Assembly (NCBI GenBank): GCA_012033105.1
Contig: JAAUPN010000002.1
Span: 1 to 52,275 of the forward strand
Direction of reading: 5' to 3'
DNA length: 52,275 nucleotides
Source: Coleofasciculaceae cyanobacterium RL_1_1
Lineage (GTDB): Bacteria > Cyanobacteriota > Cyanobacteriia > Cyanobacteriales > Geitlerinemataceae
The notes below the pieces were generated by a model that did not search any database, was not told the origin of the DNA, and saw only the letters and a list, made by a program, of their open reading frames with translations. The stretch's first letter is position 1, and each line of letters starts with the position of its first letter. Of this stretch, positions 5,899 through 50,181 are shown one piece after another. Made by a program: the position numbers and the translations under genes.

Positions 5899-7053
5899 CT
5901 AACCAATCTCTCCCATGCGATTGCAGATCGCCAGCGCCGAGGACTGGACGGCAGCACAAATCTGATTACGACCGGCGGCTTTGGCATGGTATAGCATCTG
6001 ATCCGCCTGGGCTAAGACTGCTGTTGGGGTGCAGCCTTGCTCTGGTATCACGCAGATTAGACCGATCGAGAGTGTCACTACCGTGCTGACGGTAGACGCA
6101 GCATGAGGGATAGCAGCGTATGCGAGCTGTTGTTGAATCCTGTTGGCAATCTGCCGCGAACCCGCGATCGGGGTGTTCGGCATAATAATCGCAAACTCTT
6201 CCCCACCGTAGCGAGCCGCCAAATCCGCCGATCGATGAACACTCTGCGCCAAAATCTTAGCCACACTTTCCAAGCAATCATCACCCATCAAGTGACCATA
6301 GGTATCGTTGTAAGCCTTGAAGCAATCCACATCGCATAACAGCAAGGAAAACGGCTGCTGTTCGCGCACGGCACGACGCCATTCGCGAGCCAGAACTTCA
6401 TCAAAGTACCGACGATTCGCCAGACCCGTCAGGCCGTCACTCGTTGCCAGCCGCGTTAACTCCTGATTGGCCGCTTCAAGCTGTAGCGTGAGAGCGCGTT
6501 CTCGCTCAATTTGCGCCTGAAGTTGCAGGGTATCCCAGTAGGCTTGCAACAAACGGCGCACTCTTTGGCACAACACCGGCCAGTGAATCGGCTTCGTCAC
6601 ATAATCCGTTGCTCCAGCCTCAAAAGCACGATCCACCGATTCAGAATCATCCAGTACCGTAATCATCAGCACCGGAACATCCTGAGCTTCCGGAAGCTGG
6701 CGTAATTGCTGGCAGCAGGTAAACCCGTCAATTCCTGGCATCACGCCATCTAACAGCACCATTTGCGGTCGCGATTTTGCAAACTCAGCCAAGCACTGCT
6801 CACCATTATTCGCTTCTAGCACCTCATACCCTTCCCACTCCAGTGCCAGCCTCAACAGCAGACGCATGGCTCGATCGTCGTCAACGATCAAAATGGTTGA
6901 AGCCTTCGGATCAAACATACTCAGTGCCTGGTAAGAGTTGTCCATAAGGCCGACACACACCGATGTGTCTTGAGATGCCTTACCGTTTGTCATACAGACA
7001 TATATTCGTCTCAACAGAACAATCTGTGTCCGAATCTCTAACCTCATCCTCAA
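5899..7053 (-). CDS. Response regulator with GGDEF domain (diguanylate cyclase)
   Basis: This protein makes cyclic di-GMP from two GTP. A receiver domain spans about residues 52-172, with acidic pocket VDDD, phospho-acceptor Asp102 (LLDGVMPG) and the conserved Lys in YVTKPI. After a coiled linker comes a GGDEF domain with intact active site RYGGEEF (283-287). The product-inhibition I-site RxxD (RSAD, 274-277) stands exactly five residues before it, as in PleD. It should therefore be active, controlled by phosphorylation and subject to feedback. The start is uncertain: ATG at 7053, at 6993 or at 6945, the last giving a more typical receiver N-terminus. A 17-bp hairpin lies in the upstream gap at 7099-7144. 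The next gene downstream is the DICT/HD-GYP protein, a likely partner. Confidence 0.92.
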   Translation of the reverse strand: MRMRLEIRTQIVLLRRIYVCMTNGKASQDTSVCVGLMDNSYQALSMFDPKASTILIVDDDRAMRLLLRLALEWEGYEVLEANNGEQCLAEFAKSRPQMVLLDGVMPGIDGFTCCQQLRQLPEAQDVPVLMITVLDDSESVDRAFEAGATDYVTKPIHWPVLCQRVRRLLQAYWDTLQLQAQIERERALTLQLEAANQELTRLATSDGLTGLANRRYFDEVLAREWRRAVREQQPFSLLLCDVDCFKAYNDTYGHLMGDDCLESVAKILAQSVHRSADLAARYGGEEFAIIMPNTPIAGSRQIANRIQQQLAYAAIPHAASTVSTVVTLSIGLICVIPEQGCTPTAVLAQADQMLYHAKAAGRNQICAAVQSSALAICNRMGEIG

Positions 7054-10835: not shown

Positions 10836-11087
10836 GGTCGCATCTCCCCATAATTTCAGGTAATGAGTGTTAGATCAGGCATGGTTGAACGGGCTGCGAT
10901 CAGTGCAGACTGCGATCGAACCAAGCGATTGAAACGGAGTCGCCACGCGACATCGGTTTCCACTCGACCTGTCACAAAACAGGTATGAGCTTCATTGTGA
11001 TTGATTTGCGAATCGGCGGCAAATGCTATGCCATAAATTTAAAAATCTACTTAAAAATCTACCTAAAATCGATTTTTAAACATCTGC

Positions 11088-14008
11088 TTAATGCAAATTT
11101 GGCTCCAAGCCTGAATCCGTTGTTGCACATCGCATACAGTCGGTAGATGTGAACCGGCGGATTTGATTGGGATCTGCCAGCACGATCGGCGGCAAGCCCG
11201 GTGCTGTGACGGGTTGATGTTCTGCTTCGCGGTGGGCGATCGTTGTATTGAGGTTGAGTAAAAGGTGAGGGGATCGTCGCGATCGGTTAGTCCGTAAGCG
11301 TTGCGGACACAGGCGTCGAGTTGAGCGTGGGCGTGATGTAAGGCCGTGTCGCCCGGTTGATCGAGGGTGCGGTAAAGCTCGCGTAGGCTGAGGCGATCGG
11401 TGTGCATTTGCTCGCGACGAAGCTGACGCAGGGCGACGGTGGCGGCGGCGATCGCTTCGATTTGCTCGATCGTGGGGGATTGCGGCCAGGGGAATGTATC
11501 AAAAACACTGTGGGAGGTGTAGCGAAAATCACGTTTTAGGGTGGAGCAACGATTGGTAAACCAAAGCCAGTGTAGTGAGGATTGTAAAATCCCAAAGGAG
11601 TAATCATCCTCAAAGGTAAAAATCTGTAAGGCATCATTCGGACGAATTTTTGTACTGACGAACTCAAAAATTGGACGCTTGGTTACACGAGCACAGGTGA
11701 TATATCTGTCAAGATTAGTTAGCTTTTGCAGTAACTCCGGGCGACTACGCCATAAACGCCACCACTTTTGTAAGTGCGACTGGCGTGGCCCAATTTTTTT
11801 GTTCGTTGATTGTCGTTCTTGTTGTGCGTTTTGACGCATTTGAGGCAGAACACGATCGCGAATTACCGCATACGCACTGGTATAAGTTTTTGCTGTTTTT
11901 TCGGTTTTAATCGTACTGAGATCAATCACATAGCGAGTCGGCTGCCCTCCGATTGTTCCCAGTAATTCATTAGCATTGAGATAGGGATAAATCACTGACA
12001 GACTTTTTTGATCCCAATCTATTGTTTGAGCGATCGCTGTCTCTAACAAAAATCCATCATGACCATGAGTTTGTCCCTGATAACAACACTTCACGCTACG
12101 ATTGACCGCCAAAGTCTGCGCTTGACTCACATCCACACCCGACGATAACGCCGAATTAATCAACTCAATATTCTCTTCATAGCGCCACGGACTCTCACGC
12201 GAATCACCTAACTGTGTCGCCAACTTTTTCGGTGCGTTGTATTCACCCTTGACCCAATTCACCAGCGACACATGCACCGCTGCCTCCCCTGACCACACCT
12301 GCGACGAAACCGCATTAAAAATCGTCCCGCCCGTCTCCACGATGTAGTCCAAACCGCCTTGACGCGAATAGTTCTGGCGGATCGTATTCGTGCCGACCAG
12401 CCCCGCCCGATCGCCCTCAGATAAGCGATCGTGCGCTCGCCGAAACCAGTACACGCAGTAATCCGCCCGTCCCGGAATATCCGGATAACGTTCCCGCAAC
12501 GCTCGTATATAATCCGCGCCAAACTCCCGCTGCATCTTGTTTTTTGATTGAAATGGCGGGTTACCGATGATGGCATTTGCGTACGGCCATTCGTCAATTT
12601 CCAACGCATCGCAGCGCATGATATTACGATCGAGCGTATCGAGTGGTAACACGGCTTCATCTAAACCCAGCGTATCGACCGCGACTTTTCGGGCGATCGA
12701 TAACGTGACCCGCGCTAGTTCAACCGCGAAGGCATTGCGATCAAGTCCGAAAAATTGCTGTTCGAGATTAATCCCGCTGAGGCGTCGGGTTTGTGCCGTT
12801 TTGTCTTGTTCCTGATCAAAAATCTTATCAATTAAAAGCTGCTCAACTTGCTTTAATTCTTGATAGGCCATGTAGAGAAAATTACCGGAGCCACAGGCCG
12901 GATCGAGAATTCGATAGCGCTGCATTTCTAAATGCAAGGCATTCAAGTCGGCTAAATCATGGGTTGCTTCGATGCGTTCTTCCCAGTATTGCCCGATCGT
13001 GGGTCGGACAATTTTCATGATGTCATTTTCTGAGGTGAAGTGAATCCCCTCTATATGTCGATCTTCAGTATTGAGCGTTGCCTCAAAAATACTGCCAAAA
13101 ATTGCCGGACGCACCTTGCTCCAATTGTGGCGTGTCGCCCGATCGAGCATTAATAGCTCCTGCTTTTCTAGCTCGATCGGCGGTAATTTTGCAAATAGAC
13201 CACCATTGAAATACCGCACTCCTTGAAATCGACCATAGGGCGTTTTTCCTGCTTCATTCATTTCTCGAAACAGACCTTTGCATAAAATATCGTAGGTGCT
13301 TTCAGGTTGGGGCGGTAAACACTTTTTGACCGCCTCAGAAAATGCTTTGTCAGGCAGTAGCTGACGATATTCTGAGAACAGCGCTAAGACACACTGTAAA
13401 ACAAAGCGCTGGGCGTCACTTTCATTAAAATAGGTCGATGGGGATTGACTCCGGTGCTGCAATGATTGATACAGCTCACCCATGTCTTCCGCCGCCGCTT
13501 TTGTCACTTCAACGATCTGGCCGTCACGGAAGAGAGGCACTCGCACGCCGCCTTCCATAAACCGAAAGGCATCGAGATGAAAGCCAATTTCTTCAGTGCG
13601 AATTTTATCGACCGGCGTACCGATCGCCTGCTCAAAATCGTAAATCCAAAACTCATCGAAATTACACAAAACGGCATAGCGCGGCGATGGATTGAGATGG
13701 CTCACGTAATCCCATACCTGGCCGTAGTGCCGATCTAGTCGTCGTTCCGATCGGCGTTTTAGTTCGACAATCACCGACCCACGCGGCCAATACAAATCGG
13801 CATAACCTGTTTTTCCTCGTCGTCCAGCTCCAGGAATGGCTCGCTCAAGCCGCGCATCTGCTTGAATTGTCCCTTCATGACCAAACGCGCGAAAAAATGC
13901 TTCGAGAAAAGGAGCGCCCTGATTGCGTTCGCTTTGTTCTTTGCCATTCACGATATGACGGCGATAAAACTGAAGAAAGGTTTCGATGCTGTCGGGGGTG
14001 GCGGCCAT
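11088..14008 (-). CDS. MmeI-like single-chain type II restriction-modification enzyme (frame break near 11260)
   Basis: One polypeptide carries nuclease, N6-adenine methyltransferase and target recognition. The N-terminal PD-(D/E)xK nuclease motif is GYADLYWPRG followed by VELKRR, very like the MmeI nuclease. Methyltransferase motif I is LDPACGSGNFLYMAY and motif IV is IIGNPPFQSK. Helical and target-recognition regions follow. The ATG at 14008 (MAATPDSIETF) is the better start, since 33 upstream codons to 14107 look non-coding. The C-terminus turns to nonsense after DDPLTF. Adding one base to the A4 run at 11260-11263 gives the family-like tail LLNLNTTIAHREAEHQPVTAPGLPP and a stop at 11088, for about 973 residues. 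As printed, the frame stops at 11063. No separate methylase or specificity gene is nearby. Confidence 0.88.
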
Positions 14009-14324
14009 GATGATGGAATGATTGCGAAAGATATAAGGGCTGAGTCTATTAAAGGCTGTCATTCTGCATGGGGAATAGCGACACTTGATGACCTGTGCGT
14101 GTCTCAAAGTGATGACACGACATTCTTGACGCAGACAGAATCAGTGAGGACAGTAGATGAACGTTGCCCTCCCTCAAAAACATTCCTGCTGATGAGTGGA
14201 GCTACCTTTGTTTTTTACTGGTGGTCTGGTGAAGCTTTTGTAGCCGTCTTTAGCTGCCGTTATCAGGCGTATAGAAGAAATACATGGCCTTGAATCCCGT
14301 CGGCACGTTAGTCTGCTGATCCAT

Positions 14325-14383: not shown

Positions 14384-17300
14384 ATGGCTATTTCCGTTCA
14401 GCGATCGCTGTTGCCTAAAACGCCTTTGCCGAAGGAGTTAAGTGTTCTAGAGGTTTGGGGCTTTGGGCTGAGTGGTTTACTGCTGTGGCTCGGCCCTGCT
14501 CCAGCGATGAATGCTGACCTTGGATCGCAGGCGATTTTTGTCTGGGGTGTGGCGACGATCGGCGGAATTTTGCTGAATTTGCAGGTCAAGCATCTGGGTG
14601 TGCGCTGGCCGCAGCGATCGGGCGGAACACCGAACTACACGACCGAGTTACTCAAGGATCGCCCATTACTCGCGATCTACGGTGCGATCGGCTACTTCCT
14701 CGGCTGGGTCTCCGTGCCTGCCATGAACGGCATTATTCTGACGGACTTGGTTGCCGCAAACCTGCACGCGATCGGCCTCAGTTGCCCCGAAGTATTCTTC
14801 CAAATTGTATTTACCAGCGTGCCGTTTATTGTCGCGCTGAGTGGAACCCGAGCCCTCGGACTGTTACACCTTTGCTTTATTTTGCCTGCGGTCGGATTTT
14901 TGCTGTTGTTTTGTTTGCAGGGTCTGGGCTGGCTGGCGATCGCACCCGATAGTCCCAGCTTTCTACCAGAACAATGGCCAACTTTTTCGCTGACGGGGTG
15001 GATGAAGTGGTATTTTCTCGCGGTCTATGCGGCCTATGGCTGTGAAACGGCCTCCTCCTTTATCGCTGACAATCGCAATCATCGCGCCTCCCTGCACAGC
15101 CTTTCCTTGGCCGCGCTCCTGTTACCGATCGTCTACTTCGGTGGTTCATGGTTACTCATGCGTCTTGCGACCGATCCCACCCTGCAAGGCAATGCGTACC
15201 TCAACCTAGTCGCTGTCGCCCAGCCCTTTTGGGGCAGTGCCGCGACGCTGATTGTCACCTTCCTCATTGCCTCCGGCTGCTTGCTAAGTTCTGCCACAGC
15301 GGTCGCCAACTCACCCCGCATTCTGTACCAGTTAGCGATTGATCGCTACTTTGCCCCAGTCTTCTCGATCGTCTCACGACGCGGCTCCTTTGGCCCCGGC
15401 CTGATCTTTACGCTAATCCTCAGCCTAGCCTGCTTGATTTGGGGGAACGTTGAGCGGGTCGTCATGATTACCGGTACAGGCTACCTCTCGGGCATGATTG
15501 CCATTCATGCAGGCATCTGGTTGCAACGGGGCAAGCGAGGAGTCTACCAACCCTACTGGGCTTTGGCCTTCGGTCTGATCGAGTTTGTCGTGCTGGTGGT
15601 GGGCGGTCTCGCCTGGAGCTGGCAAGACTTACTCCTTGGGTTACTGATGCCCTTTGGGGTCTACGCCCTCAATCAAATCATTGCCCGCATCCCCCTAGCG
15701 ATCTTCTCGACACAGTGGTGGCTCAGACGCTACCGCACCGTCAAAACCGAAAGCTTTGGCCGCTTCGTCACGGTTCAAATTTTGGTGCTGATCTTTCTGG
15801 TCTGTGGCGGAACCCTAACGGGCTGGCAACTCCATATTTTTGTCGGTCAGTCCACAGATGCCGCCAACCGACCCGAAGTCATGACCAACTTACTGGTGAT
15901 TTTATTGCTCGTGATGGGGTTTGTGGGCGTGGCGATCGCCTGTTGGACAAGCCTGCCCCAGGTTGCCGCTATTGCCGATGCCCGTGAACAATTTGAGCGA
16001 CTCTTCGCCATCGATAAAGACGGGATCATCGTGATCGATGAACACAGCGAAATTCGTCAAGCCAATCCTGCGGCTCATACCTTCCTAACTAAGGGTGATC
16101 AAACCATTCTCGGTCAAACACTACAGCACTACTTACCCGAACTGGCAAACCGAGTGAGTCAGTGGAATCAGCGCACCGAAATTACGCTGGCGCGTCCCCA
16201 ATTTGCAAGCGAACGCCAGCCAGACACCACGCGAATTCTTGAGATGAGGATTTCTCGGCTCAGTTTCGATGAAGACTCGGATTATCTGGTGATCTTGCGC
16301 GATATTACCGAGCAAAAGCGGGCAGAAATTGCACTGCTTGACCAAGCTCAAGCCCTAGAAGTGCGGGTGCGCGAGCGTACAGCGGAGTTGGAACAAGCCA
16401 AAGAAAAAGCCGACGCCGCCAATCAGGCCAAAAGCACCTTTATTGCGAGTATGAGCCATGAATTGCGCACCCCACTGAACGCCATTCTCGGCTTTGCTCA
16501 GATCATGACCCGATCGCAAACCCTACCCGCTGAACACCAAGAGAATGTCGGCATTGTTGCCCGCAGCGGCGAACACCTATTGATGCTGATCAACAACATC
16601 CTCGATCTATCGAAGATTGAAGCGGGCAAAACAAACCTCAACCTCCAAAGCTTCGACCTGCATCAACTGCTCAACGACGTTCATGACCTTTTGCATTTCA
16701 AGGCTGACGATCGCAAACTCACGCTCCTGCTGGAATATGACGCCGATTCTTTACCGCGCTATATTCATAGCGACCCAGTCAAACTTCGACAGGTACTGAT
16801 CAATTTGATTGGTAACAGCATTAAGTTTACGGATCATGGCGGCATTGCCTTACGGGTCGGAAAACACCTCAATTCACCCAATACATTAGAGTTTGAAGTC
16901 GAAGACTCCGGCGCAGGAATTGCCCCCGACGAACTCGACTATTTATTTGAAGCCTTCACCCAGACCGAAACCGGTCGCCAAGCTCAAGAAGGTACGGGCC
17001 TCGGATTGCCAATCAGTCGCCGTTTTGTCCAGTTAATGGGCGGCGATATTACCGTCCAGTCCAAATTAAACCAAGGTACAATCTTCCGTTTTACCATCCA
17101 GGTGACCGAAGCCCGCGCCGAAGATATCGTGATTCTGCAACCCCAACGCCGAATTTTGGCCTTAGAACCGGGCCAACCACAGTATCGACTGTTAATTGTC
17201 GATGACAAACCGCTCAATCGTCAGCTTTTAGTCAAACTGCTAGCGCCGCTCGGGTTTGCACTAAAAGAAGCGAGCAACGGCCAAGAGGCGATCGATCTAT

Positions 17301-17814
17301 GGAAAAGTTGGCAGCCTCACCTCACCTGGATGGACATGCGAATGCCGGTTCTCAACGGCTATGAAGCCACCAAAAAAATCCGTCAGTTATCTTGCAACCT
17401 CCCGATCGAAACCCACAACAAAATTATTGCGGTCACGGCGAGTATGTTTGAAGAGGAGCGAGCCGTCGTACTCGCCGCCGGTTGCGATGATTTTTACGCA
17501 AACCGTTTCGCGACGAATCCATTTTTGAGATGCTCGTCAAGCACCTTGGTGTTCGGTTTGTCTACGAAGATATTGAGCCGGATCAATTGGTTCGCGATCG
17601 AACAGTGCTTCAGGCGAAGGATCTCGAAGGTCTCCCCCACGATCTCCTCGAGCGCCTTGTTGACGCGATTGTATCGTCTGACCTCCATCAGATTTCCCAA
17701 GAATTAGCGGAAATATCGACCTATAGTCAGAAGATTGCTCAAGCCCTTCAACAATCCCTCGATCAGTTTGAATATGAGCATATATTAGAATTAATTTCCG
17801 AGATAAAAACCTGA
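14384..17814 (+). CDS. APC-type permease domain fused to hybrid sensor histidine kinase (frame break near 17501)
   Basis: Residues 1 to about 530 form a polytopic membrane domain with some 12-14 hydrophobic helices that looks like an amino acid/polyamine/organocation (APC) permease. A PAS-like segment (FERLFAIDKDGIIVIDEHSEI) follows, then a coiled coil, HisKA with [11 protein letters not shown] (His692), HATPase with N (IGNSIKFTD), G1 (DSGAGIAP) and G2 (GTGLGLPIS) boxes, and a receiver domain with Asp984 (WMDMRMPVLNGYEA). The frame breaks at GCDDFYA, where A3 at 17500-17502 should be A4. The other frame continues KPFRDESIFEMLVKHL and stops at 17814, for about 1143 residues. It probably senses a transported or bound solute and phosphorylates itself. 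The next kinase starts 3 nt downstream. Confidence 0.88.
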
Positions 17815-17817
17815 ATT

Positions 17818-19164
17818 ATGGAACCTTCCAAAACTAAAGCCATAGGTAAAATTGTTATTATTGATGACACCCCCGCAAATCTGCGCTTACTTGCCAGTTT
17901 GCTCGGCGATCGGGGCTATCAAGTTCGCCCATTTCCCAGCGGGAAACTAGCACTAGCAGGTTTAGAACGTTGCGATCCCGATCTCATTTTGCTAGATATT
18001 CAAATGCCCCAAATGGACGGCTATGAAGTCTGTCAAATTCTCAAATCACAACCCAAAACACGCGATATTCCCATTATTTTTATCAGCGCTCTCAGTGAAG
18101 CTCTGGATAAAGTCAAAGCCTTCTCCTGTGGAGGTGTGGATTACATTACGAAGCCATTTCAGGCCGAAGAAGTCATCGCACGTGTCGCGACACACGTTGA
18201 GCTGTATCACCTACAGCAACAGTTACAAAATCAAAACACCTATCAAGCCTCGCAGCTCATCAAGCAAAATAAACAGCTCCAAGAGATGAATCAGGAGCTA
18301 ATCGATCAGTATCGCCTCGTGAAAGAGGCACAGCTTCAACTGGTTCAAACTGAAAAAATGGCGACGCTGGGAAACTTAATTTCTGGAGTTGCACACGAAG
18401 TGAATAATCCCCTTGGGTGCATTAATGCCAACCTACAAATCGCTCAGGATTACATCACGGAACTCTTAGATTTTATCCAAGTATCACAAACAATCGATCT
18501 GCCTGCCGACAGTGATTTAACTCGTCGTCTTAATGAATTTGAAATTGAATTTATCCAAGAGGATTTACCGCAATTATTAGACTCAATTTTACGCAGTACT
18601 AAAACCATTCGGGATATTAGCGATTCATTGCGTGTCTTTTCTCGTACTGAAAATGAACAGAAAAAAAGCTGTTTTAACATTCATGCCGGACTAGACAGTA
18701 CGCTGCTCATTCTGCGCTACCGCCTGAAAGCAAATCACCAGAGACCCGCCATTCGTGTGACGAAAGAGTATGGCGCTATTTCAGATATCGAGTGTTTTCC
18801 TGGCAAACTGAATCAGGTGTTTATGAACATCATTGCGAATGCGATCGACGCGTTTGACGAGGCCAACACCGATCGCAGCTATGGTGACATCGACGCCAAC
18901 CCAAACCAAATTTGGATTCGTACAATGTTCATCGACGGAACCATGCTCCAAATTGAGATCCAGGACAATGGCTCCGGTATGAGCGAAACCCTACAGGCAA
19001 AGGTGTTCAACCAGGGATTTACAACCAAGGCCGTGGGCAAAGGGACGGGTTTAGGGCTAGCGATCGCCCGTCAAATCATCGAAGTTGAGCATGGGGGGTC
19101 GCTGAAACTCCAGTCGATCGAAGGAGAAGGCTCAACCTTTACGATTAGTCTCCCCATCCTCTAG
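17818..19164 (+). CDS. Response regulator-histidine kinase (REC-HK)
   Basis: The protein has 448 residues. An N-terminal receiver has the DD pocket (VIIDDTPAN), acceptor Asp60 (LLDIQMPQMDG) and Lys in YITKPF. A coiled coil of about 60 residues follows, then a HisKA-like segment with GVAHEVNNPLG (His193) and an ATPase with N box NIIANAIDAF, G1 DNGSGMS and G2 GTGLGLAIA. It has no membrane segment, so it is cytosolic. The ATG comes three bases after the stop of the permease-kinase gene, so the two are translationally linked in one operon. The likely phosphorelay is kinase, then its own receiver, then this receiver and kinase, but the direction is inference. No DNA-binding output protein is encoded beside them. 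Confidence 0.95.
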   Translation: MEPSKTKAIGKIVIIDDTPANLRLLASLLGDRGYQVRPFPSGKLALAGLERCDPDLILLDIQMPQMDGYEVCQILKSQPKTRDIPIIFISALSEALDKVKAFSCGGVDYITKPFQAEEVIARVATHVELYHLQQQLQNQNTYQASQLIKQNKQLQEMNQELIDQYRLVKEAQLQLVQTEKMATLGNLISGVAHEVNNPLGCINANLQIAQDYITELLDFIQVSQTIDLPADSDLTRRLNEFEIEFIQEDLPQLLDSILRSTKTIRDISDSLRVFSRTENEQKKSCFNIHAGLDSTLLILRYRLKANHQRPAIRVTKEYGAISDIECFPGKLNQVFMNIIANAIDAFDEANTDRSYGDIDANPNQIWIRTMFIDGTMLQIEIQDNGSGMSETLQAKVFNQGFTTKAVGKGTGLGLAIARQIIEVEHGGSLKLQSIEGEGSTFTISLPIL

Positions 19165-19292
19165 AAGCGCGGGAAGACGAAACTCTGTAAACACTGCGGT
19201 CAAACGCCAGAAACCACAGAACGCAAATCTTGGATTCGAGCAAGTTCTCGAGCCGCCAAGTTGTTTTCCGAAGGGTTTTGTCAGGCTTAAAA

Positions 19293-19364
19293 AGCCAGTG
19301 ACGAGATTTGAACTCGTGACCGCTCGATTACGAATCGAGTGCTCTACCACTGAGCTACACTGGC
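19293..19364 (-). tRNA. tRNA-Thr (anticodon CGU)
   Basis: On the minus strand a complete 72-nt cloverleaf is visible. The acceptor stem pairs GCCAGTG with CACTGGC, the D arm is GCTC/GAGC, the anticodon arm is CTCGA-TTCGTAA-TCGAG with anticodon CGT, and the T arm is ACGAG-TTCAAAT-CTCGT. The discriminator base is T and no CCA is encoded. It reads ACG codons. It sits antisense in the gap between two plus-strand kinase genes. Confidence 0.97.
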
Positions 19365-19728
19365 CAATCGGCTAAAACATCATAGCAAGGCTTTTCCGAT
19401 TTGTTAATATTTTGGGTGATTTTTTTCATTGCGACCTCAACTACCGCCTGCTCACCCCTACCCGCCAAATCATCCAGAGGCTCCAGTTCGTCATCGCAGT
19501 AGCATCCTGCCCTGAGAACGCGGAAGACTTCAGACGCTCTACTACTACAATTGACATAACGTATGAAAGATCTGACTACTAAAGATCCGGCCAAGACGAC
19601 GCTCATCGGGCTTGTCCTGACACTGTTAGTCGTTGCGCACAACTCGCGACGGTATCTCTAAATCACTCCACAGCCGTTGGTACGAAGAGTCTGCGGGTAG
19701 GCATGAGGTTTTGCGACGGGTAGTTCCT

Positions 19729-21681
19729 ATGCATGTTTTCGAGAATAGCGAGCTGTTTCAAGCCCTGTTGACATCTAGCCCGACAGCAATCGCGATCGTT
19801 GATCGTCAGATGCGCTACATTGCCGTGACGCAGCAGTGGACGCAGGCTTTTGGGATTGCTGAAACAGACCTGATTGGCATGAGCCACTACGACCTTTTTC
19901 CGCAGCATGGCTCCGGTTGGCGGCGTATTCACTTGTCATGCTTAGACGGTCAGAGCGGCCAATGGCAAGAGCCAGACTGTCAACTGTTAAACGGCAAAGT
20001 TGTCGCCGCACAATGGACAATCCGTCCCTGGAAAAGCCCTATCTCTCCTGTTGAAAATGACCCAGAGACCGCCCCTCCTCACATCGCGGGTCTTGTCCTC
20101 GGCTGGGAAGACATTTCCCGAGCCAAGCACGCCCTCCAAGCCGCCTGGAGGCAACAGAAACATCTGAATAGGCAGGTTCAGCAGCTGAGTCGCGCTCTAG
20201 AGTACGAAAAAAAGGAACGCCAGCGCACCGATGACATGCTGCCCCTCGGACAAATTTCGATTAATAAATCGGGAGATGCGGTGTTTTGGCTCGATCATGA
20301 CGGTGGCATTTTCTACGTCAACGACTCCGCTTGTCTTTCCCTCGGCTACACCCGTAGCGAATTGCTTGAGATCAAAATCCACGATATTAATCCGGACTTT
20401 CCACCAGAGATTTGGCCGGACTATCGCGATCAGGTGCGCGAATTTGGCTCGTTTACGCTCGATTCACGCCATCGGCGCAAAAATGGCAAGATCTTCCCGG
20501 TTGAGATTACGATTACGTCCCTGATGTATCGAGGACAAGAATATATTTGTACGTTTGCGCGAGACATTACCGAACGCAAACGCGCTGAGGCGGAACTCTA
20601 CCAAGCGACGATCGCCGCTGAAGCCGCCAACCAAGCCAAAAGCTCCTTTTTGGCCAATATGAGCCATGAGTTACGCACGCCCCTCAACGCGATTATTGGC
20701 TACGGCGAAATTTTGCAGGAAGAAATCGAAGATCTCGAACTGGATGGCGATGAGGCGGAAGATCTCATGTCCGACCTCAAGAGCATTACGACCGCCGGAC
20801 GTCACTTACTTTCGATTATTAGCGATATCCTCGACTTCTCGAAAATCGAAGCGGGGCGCATGGATCTCGCTCCGGAGGAGTTTGATGTATCGACGCTGAT
20901 TTATGAGCTGGAATCGACGGTGCAGCCTCTCGTTGAGAAAAATACCAACACGCTCAAGGTTGAGTGCAGCCTCAATCTCGGCACGATGTATGCCGATCGC
21001 ACCAAAATCAGCCAAGTGCTGCTCAATCTACTCAGCAATGCCGCGAAATTCACCCACCAAGGCACGATCGTCATGACCGTCAACCGTCAGGAATCTCCCT
21101 TTAGCGAGATTCGGAACGAGGCCGAGCGGGATGCAGAAGCCAGCAGCAGTGCCGCCGACCCCACCGCCTGGATTTGCTTCCGGGTCAGCGATACCGGTAT
21201 TGGTCTGAGTGACGATCAAATCCAAAGCATTTTTCAGCCCTTTACCCAAGCCGATGAGTCCACCACAAAACGCTACGGTGGCACTGGCTTGGGTTTGGCC
21301 ATCAGTCGTAAGTTCTGCCAGATGATGGGGGGCGACATTACGGTGGAAAGTGAACTCGATGTGGGGTCAACCTTTACGATCGACCTGCCTGCCGCTGACA
21401 AAGCCGCTGACCCCGCCGCAGGACTCACCCAAACCCAAACCGATACTTCCTACGGGTTAAACACCGCAGAGTCTCTTGGCTCTACAGACCTGGGGTCTTC
21501 GACCGACGCCGAGCTACCCCTCCTCCATGAAACGGCAGAACTGCTCGAATTGCCGGAGTTTGCGGGAGTCTCGTTTAATGATTTAGCGGACGAAGAAGAT
21601 GCAGAACCACCGCGATCGTCGCTGCTCATCGATTCCTTTGACGATGATGCCCCCCTCGAAAAGAACGAATGGTTTGCCTAA
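19729..21681 (+). CDS. PAS-PAS sensor histidine kinase
   Basis: Taken from the ATG at 19729 ([10 protein letters not shown]) the protein has 650 residues, and the open frame back to 19633 is unlikely to be translated. PAS 1 covers about residues 5-130 and PAS 2 about 180-290, ending in the typical [15 protein letters not shown]. HisKA has [11 protein letters not shown] with His313. The ATPase has N box [14 protein letters not shown]1 DTGIGLS and G2 GTGLGLAIS. There are no transmembrane helices, so the signal is cytosolic (redox, light or a small ligand). An acidic, low-complexity tail of about 110 residues follows the ATPase and lacks a receiver. The stop codon falls within a three-copy 11-bp repeat (21675-21707). 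Confidence 0.93.
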
Positions 21682-48279: not shown

Positions 48280-50181
48280 GTGCTTGATATCACCGCATCA
48301 TGGCGTCACTTAAAAGCCTCCTTTGCTCGCCAGTTGACCACCGGACATCGGCTCGATGGTTTACGTCTTAGTCGATCGCTCTACACCAAAATCGGCCTAG
48401 GTTACTGCTGGGCAATTACGATCGGCATGGTCGGTTCCCTCGTCGGTCTAGTCGGCGCAGACTATTACCAAGGCCAAGGGATCGAACAGTTATTTGATGC
48501 CCAAGAGCAGGCCAAACTCCTCGATGAGTTGCAGTTTGCTAGCTCCGAAATGAAGTTTCAGGGACTACTGCTGGAGGTGAAGGTTGGACAGGGTCAACAG
48601 GAGAAAACACAGCATTTGTTGACGTTTGAGCAAACAAAAGATAAAGCGATCGTCCGAGCCAAAGCGGTCATTGAATTTGTGGGGACAAATCCGGCCTGGG
48701 TAGCGACGAACCCCGATCAATTTGTGGCGTTGATCGAGGCGCATTCAGAGGCCATTACCCTTTACCATAACCATCTCGCACAGTTTTTGGCTGAGATAGA
48801 ACCATCTCTGACACTCGGTGAGGTGAGTGTTTTACAGCGTCAGCTTGCCTCGATCCAGCGTGGCGTCCATTTAAAACAGCTCGAAACGCTATCGCAGGAG
48901 ATTGAACAGCTACGACGTCATGCGACCGAGCAAGCCGTCAGCAGCGGCGATCGGATGGAAATCATCCAGGGCTATGAAAAATTTGTCATTATCATGAGTC
49001 TCTTGGCCTCTTCGGGGTTTGCGGCTTGGATCGCATGGCGAACCACGCGACAAATTGCTGCCCCGATCGCCGATGCGGCGACCCTCGCACAACAGGTTGC
49101 GAGCAAATCCGATTACAGCCTACGGTTACCCGTGACCCAGGATGATGAGGTGGGACGTTTGGCGGAAGCGTTGAATTATTTAATTGAGCGTATTGATCTG
49201 CGATCGCGTCAGTTAAAAATCTCGGCTAAAAATGCTCGTAACAAAGCCAACACCCTACAGCGTGCCTTAACCGAACTTGAAAGTACCCAAGCACAGTTGA
49301 TTCAAAGCGAAAAAATGTCATCGCTCGGGCAGTTGGTTGCTGGTATTGCTCATGAGATTAATAATCCCACTAGCTTTATTTACGGCAATATATCCCACGC
49401 CCGCGAGTATGTCAGCGACTTGTTGGGCTTACTCAGCGCCTACCGGCATCGCTATCCTGACGATCGCGAACTCAACGATCTAGCCGACGATCTCGACTAT
49501 GACTTTGTCGTTGATGATGTGCAGAAAATGATCGACTCCATGGAAAATGGCGCTCAACGTATTAGTGAGATCGTACGATCGCTGCGGACATTTTCACGAC
49601 TGGACGAAACAGAGGTCAAATCTGTCGATCTCCATGAGGGCATCGATAGCACCCTCACCATTTTGAATACACGTTTTCGGATGTTTCCAAATGTCCATCC
49701 ACTCAAGTTGGTCAAAGATTATGGTCAACTGCCTCTGGTCGAATGCCACAACACGCAAATTAATCAAGTGGTGATGAATTTGATTGTTAATGCGATCGAT
49801 GCACTAGAGGATGCGGTTGGAAATGGCAAGTGGAAGCAGTTCAGAACGGAACAATTGGAGAGGACTGGGGATGAGATCGAACCTTGTTTGACGATTCGGA
49901 CGCGCGATCGCGGGGATGGCTGGATTGTGATTGAGATGACCGATAATGCCCTCGGGATTCCTGAGGCGGCGCAGGCAAGGCTGTTTGATCCGTTTTTTAC
50001 CACCAAGGCGATCGGGCGGGGTACAGGCTTGGGACTGTCGATCTGCTACAAGATCATCACAGAAACCCATCACGGCCAACTGGAATATCAGACCGAGCTG
50101 GAACACGGTACAACCTTTAGGATTTTGCTGCCTGTTGCGCTAACCTGTCACATTCACCCCAAATCGGACATTTCCGATTAA
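48280..50181 (+). CDS. Membrane sensor histidine kinase with HAMP
   Basis: This 633-residue protein starts at GTG 48280. Transmembrane helix 1 is at about 43-60 (YCWAITIGMVGSLVGLVGAD), followed by a helical extracytoplasmic domain of about 165 residues that looks like a four-helix bundle sensor. TM2 is at about 232-250, a HAMP domain begins at ARTTRQIAAPIADA and a coiled coil leads to AGIAHEINNPTSF (His358). The ATPase has N (MNLIVNAIDAL), G1 (DNALGIPE) and G2 (GTGLGLSICY) boxes, and the G1 box is slightly altered (ALG instead of GxG). It has no receiver. A tandem repeat and palindromes at 48157-48215 precede the start. Confidence 0.93.
   Translation: MLDITASWRHLKASFARQLTTGHRLDGLRLSRSLYTKIGLGYCWAITIGMVGSLVGLVGADYYQGQGIEQLFDAQEQAKLLDELQFASSEMKFQGLLLEVKVGQGQQEKTQHLLTFEQTKDKAIVRAKAVIEFVGTNPAWVATNPDQFVALIEAHSEAITLYHNHLAQFLAEIEPSLTLGEVSVLQRQLASIQRGVHLKQLETLSQEIEQLRRHATEQAVSSGDRMEIIQGYEKFVIIMSLLASSGFAAWIAWRTTRQIAAPIADAATLAQQVASKSDYSLRLPVTQDDEVGRLAEALNYLIERIDLRSRQLKISAKNARNKANTLQRALTELESTQAQLIQSEKMSSLGQLVAGIAHEINNPTSFIYGNISHAREYVSDLLGLLSAYRHRYPDDRELNDLADDLDYDFVVDDVQKMIDSMENGAQRISEIVRSLRTFSRLDETEVKSVDLHEGIDSTLTILNTRFRMFPNVHPLKLVKDYGQLPLVECHNTQINQVVMNLIVNAIDALEDAVGNGKWKQFRTEQLERTGDEIEPCLTIRTRDRGDGWIVIEMTDNALGIPEAAQARLFDPFFTTKAIGRGTGLGLSICYKIITETHHGQLEYQTELEHGTTFRILLPVALTCHIHPKSDISD

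What the first reader, a model, noticed from the sequence alone, without database searches (positions are those of the whole stretch)
14384..19164. Amino-acid-permease-like domain fused to a hybrid histidine kinase, in operon with a REC-kinase
A full-length APC-type transporter region of about 530 residues with some 12-14 hydrophobic helices is joined to PAS, HisKA, HATPase and REC domains in one chain. A second protein with a receiver and kinase starts 3 nt later. Transporter-sensor fusions are known for the SLC5/STAC-type kinase CbrA, but an APC-type counterpart is less described. The layout suggests a transceptor: solute passage or binding sets kinase activity, with a relay through the second protein. 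Output is unknown because no regulator is adjacent.
Basis: partly seen in the sequence, partly recalled or inferred. Interest (0 to 1): 0.65.

Follow-up and report, generated by a model that had tools for sequence, protein, structure and literature searches.

The report
Permease-shaped sensor kinase of cyanobacteria
Many cyanobacteria carry a membrane protein shaped like an amino-acid permease that is always joined to a signalling enzyme, so it probably senses a small molecule instead of (or as well as) transporting it, and this kind of receptor seems not to have been described.

Summary
ORF 14384-17707 joins an APC-type permease domain (Pfam AA_permease_2, 75 bits against a cut-off of 27; model fold AdiC/ApcT/LAT/KimA-like, Z 32-34) to PAS, HisKA, HATPase and REC. 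A one-base frameshift near 17490-17500 truncates REC in this assembly; the nearest relative reads through. A REC-HisKA-HATPase gene starts 3 nt after the corrected stop. It is no isolated oddity: the module occurs in 73 of 390 genomes sampled from its class, up to four per genome. All 85 full-length copies sit in signalling-length frames (738-1419 aa); none is stand-alone. Outputs vary on one input module: histidine kinases with or without REC, HisKA_2 kinase, GGDEF-EAL and a SpoIIE phosphatase. An extra two-helix unit ending in VAIACWT[ST]LPQ joins the APC fold to each output, without a STAC domain. The TM6 glutamate is kept; the TM5 lysine of H+-coupled relatives is alanine. Best reading: a transporter-derived receptor module; ligand unknown, transport untested. 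It is distinct from SLC5/STAC (CbrA), Amt (Ks-Amt5) and MFS fusions. Ten literature searches found no description. New variant of a known kind, with unusual output modularity.

The parts
14384..15703 (+). APC-fold (AA_permease_2) membrane domain, residues 1-440, TM1-12
   Evidence: Pfam PF13520 residues 47-404, 75.3 bits vs cut-off 27; AF2 model pLDDT 87.9, pTM 0.88; Foldseek AdiC E 1e-9; VIA-align Z 31-34 to KimA, LATs, AdiC, ApcT over residues 13-451
15755..15967 (+). extra two-helix unit TM13 (458-488) and TM14 (496-528), ending in GVAIACWTSLPQ; lies outside the APC fold and joins it to the output
   Evidence: DSSP of model; matches to solved APC structures end at about residue 451; A519, W521, T522 invariant in 46 sequences; motif kept with HK, HisKA_2, GGDEF-EAL and SpoIIE outputs
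16019..16321 (+). PAS domain (residues 546-646)
   Evidence: Pfam PAS_4 34.1 bits
16427..16627 (+). HisKA phospho-acceptor domain, H-box SHELRTPL (residues 682-748)
   Evidence: Pfam HisKA 73.4 bits
16772..17107 (+). HATPase_c (residues 797-908)
   Evidence: Pfam HATPase_c 96.1 bits
17192..17500 (+). receiver domain, cut short by the frameshift (residues 937-1039)
   Evidence: Pfam Response_reg 64.4 bits to profile position 98/111; complete in L034
17488..17503 (+). site of the one-base frameshift relative to relative L034
   Evidence: pairwise alignment
17503..17814 (+). rest of REC and C-terminal helical tail in the +1 frame
   Evidence: open to TGA 17812-17814; dN/dS 0.16 against L034; no Pfam match for this piece alone
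17818..19164 (+). partner gene: REC-HisKA-HATPase kinase, 448 aa
   Evidence: Pfam; the same partner family directly follows the fusion in L034, L055-L060, L074, L081 and L097

Best explanation
A transporter-derived membrane receptor. An APC-fold domain binds a small solute (an amino acid or related amine is most likely, not shown) in or near its LeuT-type core. The conformational change is passed through TM12 and the added TM13-TM14 unit. TM14 runs on as a signalling helix into PAS and the HisKA dimer, and sets kinase activity. Phosphate goes to the protein's own REC and probably to the REC of the operon partner kinase, which passes the signal to a response regulator encoded elsewhere. In relatives the same input module is plugged into other outputs (HisKA_2, GGDEF-EAL, SpoIIE), so it works as a general sensory module of cyanobacteria. 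Shown: domain order, fold (predicted model), fusion in every full-length copy of the sample, conserved junction, output swapping, conserved partner gene. Inferred: ligand binding, helix transmission, direction of signalling, phosphotransfer to the partner.
For: Domain order. APC fold. Profile match to stand-alone APC permeases (hhalign 97.8%, E 7.5e-13) and to LysP (E 3e-5). The module is found in 73/390 genomes of the class, and all 85 full-length copies lie in frames of 738-1419 aa; stand-alone APC permeases of the same genomes lie mostly in frames of 430-535 aa. Outputs differ: HK, HK-REC, HisKA_2, GGDEF-EAL, SpoIIE, and the rarer ones are nested among HK forms in the permease tree. Junction motif at the end of TM14 is conserved whatever follows. 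TM6 glutamate (AdiC E208 position) kept in 45/46, Y215 in 43/46. TM5 Lys column, K in 15 of 16 stand-alone relatives, is A169 (at least 90%) next to invariant P168 in the fusions. Permease dN/dS 0.053 equals that of the kinase part. Conserved REC-HK partner.
Against: No ligand, transport or kinase data exist. TM1 register is uncertain: MAFFT needs a 5-residue gap and only [ST]-G of GSG is kept. TM6 unwinding differs between the two models. The second model is weak at the TM14-kinase junction (pLDDT under 50), so a continuous helix there is not established. Loss of the TM5 lysine does not exclude transport, since the exchanger AdiC also lacks it.
Confidence: 0.65

Rival explanations
1. True transceptor: the domain still transports its solute, and flux or the transport-cycle state sets kinase activity, as proposed for CbrA.
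For: Full APC fold, strong purifying selection over the transporter core, TM6 YxC-E motif kept, TM5/TM6/TM8 among the most conserved helices.
Against: TM5 lysine of H+-coupled symporters replaced by alanine; TM6 glycine is Ala in about half of the members; no stand-alone form has been kept as a transporter.
Confidence: 0.22
2. The domain senses something other than an amino acid: K+, osmotic state or a membrane parameter, using an APC fold of the KimA kind.
For: KimA (a K+ transporter) is tied with the best structural match, Z 34.1 and 33.2.
Against: Z values of KimA, LATs and AdiC are tied within 1-2 units; sequence profile matches go to amino-acid permeases (AA_permease_2, AA_permease, LysP).
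Confidence: 0.2
3. The permease part is only a membrane anchor or relic and the PAS domain does the sensing.
For: PAS follows TM14 in most members.
Against: Several members have no PAS and go straight from TM14 to HisKA (L084, L075); permease dN/dS is as low as that of the kinase; core motifs conserved in 46 sequences.
Confidence: 0.07
4. Assembly artefact or chance join of two genes.
For: The window is a draft contig and has a frameshift in REC.
Against: Same fusion in the same genus at 90% identity and in many other genomes, including complete ones.
Confidence: 0.01

Closest known systems
CbrA / CrbS / RpuS (SLC5-STAC histidine kinases)
   Same: Transporter-fold membrane domain (LeuT-type) joined to PAS, HisKA, HATPase, sometimes REC, in one chain (PMC7918813, PMC13022988, PMC9100948)
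   Different: Membrane part is SLC5 (SSS family) with 13 TMs and a STAC domain; here it is AA_permease_2 with two added helices and only about 17 residues before PAS; here outputs also include GGDEF-EAL and SpoIIE
Ks-Amt5 ammonium sensor kinase
   Same: Repurposed transporter fused to a kinase with no STAC or HAMP; transport lost and binding kept (PMC5764959)
   Different: Amt trimer fold, no PAS or REC; here an APC fold, and loss of transport is only a hypothesis
SK-MFS family (TC 2.A.1.34)
   Same: Sensor kinase fused to a secondary-carrier fold (named in PMC3924187)
   Different: MFS fold, not APC; function unknown
LysP-CadC and similar co-sensor permeases
   Same: APC permease acting as amino-acid sensor; LysP is the closest solved sequence to this family. 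The CadC link is recalled from general knowledge
   Different: LysP is a separate working transporter that touches a regulator; here sensor and enzyme are one chain
Stand-alone cyanobacterial APC permeases
   Same: Same fold and Pfam family; hhalign E 7.5e-13
   Different: Mostly 430-535 aa frames without a signalling tail; keep the TM5 lysine and the TM6 glycine that the fusions have lost or relaxed

Membership tests
APC-type permease (Pfam AA_permease_2 / AA_permease) | curated profile score above cut-off | tested here: met
   75.3 bits vs 27 in the window protein; many relatives over the AA_permease or AA_permease_2 cut-off, some below
APC-type permease (Pfam AA_permease_2 / AA_permease) | LeuT-type APC fold of 12 helices | tested here: met
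   Z 32.4 AdiC, 32.1 ApcT, 33.3 LAT1 over residues 13-451 of a predicted model
APC-type permease (Pfam AA_permease_2 / AA_permease) | unwound GxG of TM1 and Gly-x-Glu of TM6 at the substrate site | tested here: inconclusive
   TM6 Glu kept 45/46, TM6 Gly only 21/46; TM1 keeps [ST]-G but the register is uncertain
APC-type permease (Pfam AA_permease_2 / AA_permease) | solute transport | not testable with these tools
   needs uptake assays; the TM5 Lys of H+-coupled members is replaced by Ala
SLC5/STAC histidine kinases (CbrA type) | SLC5/SSS membrane domain | tested here: not met
   Pfam reports AA_permease_2 and no SSS match in the window protein
SLC5/STAC histidine kinases (CbrA type) | STAC domain between transporter and kinase | tested here: not met
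   TM14 ends at 528 and PAS starts at about 546; no room for a further domain and no match
Hybrid histidine kinase | HisKA, HATPase_c and REC in one chain | tested here: met
   window protein, with REC cut short by the frameshift, and complete in L034
Ks-Amt5 type | Amt ammonium-transporter domain | tested here: not met
   no Amt match in Pfam; AA_permease_2 instead

The most novel reading that the evidence does not exclude
A class of non-transporting APC-fold receptors in cyanobacteria: one permease-derived sensory module, with an added TM13-14 transmission unit, is shuffled between phosphorelay, c-di-GMP and SpoIIE-phosphatase outputs and has no surviving stand-alone transporter form.
Probability: 0.42. 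Interest if true: 0.75.

Novelty: new variant of a known kind. Interest (0 to 1): 0.58.

Why it matters
Transporter-kinase fusions are called rare, and the described ones use SLC5, Amt or MFS domains. Here a module of the amino-acid-permease family is a likely receptor input across cyanobacteria, kept only in fused form and joined by one conserved junction to several enzyme outputs. It gives many natural examples for asking how a transport fold drives a kinase, and whether transport was lost in the change to a receptor. It also points to an unstudied nutrient-sensing input in photosynthetic bacteria.

Tried and rejected
Artefact or chance fusion: rejected by independent copies. Stand-alone members: searched at phylum and class level and none found; the shortest frames were fetched and are interrupted inside PAS or the kinase (L061 with the HATPase in the next ORF, L139, L140). 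Plasmid copies: none. Conserved metabolic neighbours as a ligand hint: none found; recurring neighbours outside signalling genes mostly follow genus synteny. Second structure model (PAS-less L084): junction pLDDT under 50, so no helix claim is made.

Full report
Check of the observation. The window lies on contig G000:C183 of a draft cyanobacterial genome; the nearest named record is an Oscillatoriales MAG, RDYZ01000205.1, 90% identical over the permease part. ORF 14384-17707 carries AA_permease_2, PAS_4, HisKA, HATPase_c and Response_reg. One base is missing inside REC near 17490-17500 compared with the relative; the protein then continues in the +1 frame to 17814. The relative reads the whole as 1143 aa. 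The second gene, 17818-19164, is REC-HisKA-HATPase and starts 3 nt after the corrected stop.

Fold. A 46-sequence alignment (A1) gave an AlphaFold2 model with pLDDT 87.9 and pTM 0.88. Foldseek places AdiC first (E 1e-9). VIA-align gives Z 34.1 for KimA, 33-34 for LAT-type transporters, and 32 for AdiC and ApcT over residues 13-451; these are near ties. Residues 458-488 and 496-528 form two more helices outside the APC fold. By profile, the family matches LysP and stand-alone APC permeases.

Distribution. The permease domain was found in 21 of 59 relatives, 38 of 386 genomes drawn from the phylum, and 73 of 390 drawn from the class with the profile, up to four copies per genome. Each of the 85 full-length copies lies in a frame of 738-1419 aa. 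Stand-alone APC permeases in the same genomes lie mostly in frames of 430-535 aa. The shortest fusion frames are interruptions inside PAS or the kinase. The search could not be extended to other phyla.

Outputs. Pfam shows histidine kinases with or without REC, with zero to two PAS and sometimes GAF domains, a HisKA_2 kinase (L066), GGDEF-EAL (L089; L090 by similarity of its tail) and a SpoIIE phosphatase (L076). In the permease tree the rarer outputs are nested among kinase forms (support values were not printed, so this rests on topology). The end of TM14, VAIACWT[ST]LPQ, is kept whatever follows. Some members have no PAS and pass from TM14 straight to HisKA (L084, L075), so PAS is not the necessary sensor.

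Residues. On a joint alignment with stand-alone permeases, AdiC and LysP, the TM6 glutamate is kept in 45 of 46, the TM6 Gly in only 21 of 46 (Ala in 21), and the column with the TM5 lysine of H+-coupled relatives (ApcT K158 type) is alanine (A169, at least 90%) beside an invariant proline (P168). AdiC, an exchanger, lacks that lysine too, so this argues against an ApcT- or LysP-like proton symport, not against all transport. In TM1 only [ST]-G of the GSG motif is kept, and the register is uncertain.

Operon. The same REC-kinase partner family follows the fusion in 10 related loci besides the window (L034, L055-L060, L074, L081, L097), 2-387 nt away in those measured. In L069, L070 and L077 a single-domain response regulator and then REC-kinases follow; in L062 and L068 such a regulator is also near. 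This supports phosphotransfer between these proteins but does not prove it. dN/dS against L034 is 0.053 (permease), 0.059 (PAS-HK-REC) and 0.16 (after the frameshift); dS exceeds 1, so these are rough.

Mechanism. The best-supported reading is a transporter-derived receptor: ligand binding in the APC core, transmission through TM13-14, and control of the fused enzyme. Rivals are a working transceptor, a non-amino-acid sensor and a mere anchor; the last is disfavoured by conservation and by PAS-less members. Ligand, direction of the signal and phosphotransfer are inference.

Comparison. CbrA-type kinases have SLC5 plus STAC (PMC7918813, PMC13022988); Ks-Amt5 has Amt (PMC5764959); SK-MFS fusions have MFS (PMC3924187). 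SLC5 counts within the APC superfamily, so the difference is of family and not of overall fold. Ten searches of an open-access library found no description of AA_permease-type sensor kinases. Subscription journals and domain databases were not searched, so absence is not proof.

Noticed in passing
window 11063-14107 (-): MmeI-type restriction-modification protein (MmeI_N, helicase spacer, MTase and TRD domains), divergent from and next to the fusion gene.
   Followed up: no
window 19633-21681 (+): Another PAS-PAS histidine kinase follows the operon after a tRNA-Thr on the other strand (19292-19365); the same kinase family lies in the same place in relative L034.
   Followed up: partly
window 5899-7053 (-): REC-GGDEF response regulator about 7 kb upstream on the opposite strand: a possible but unproven target.
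   Followed up: no
window 48280-50181 (+): HAMP-type histidine kinase whose kinase region resembles that of the fusion family by eye (SSLGQLVAGIAHEINNP).
   Followed up: no
L070 5484-14744: Three APC-kinase fusions in tandem followed by a response regulator and two REC-kinases.
   Followed up: partly
L104 124-2748 (-): A different, ordinary-type APC permease in an 875-aa frame with a long unidentified C-terminal extension; could be a real fusion or a frame join.
   Followed up: no
G000:C180:16940-17572 (L096): Third AA_permease_2 match of the own genome, in a 558-aa frame near a contig end, not identified.
   Followed up: no
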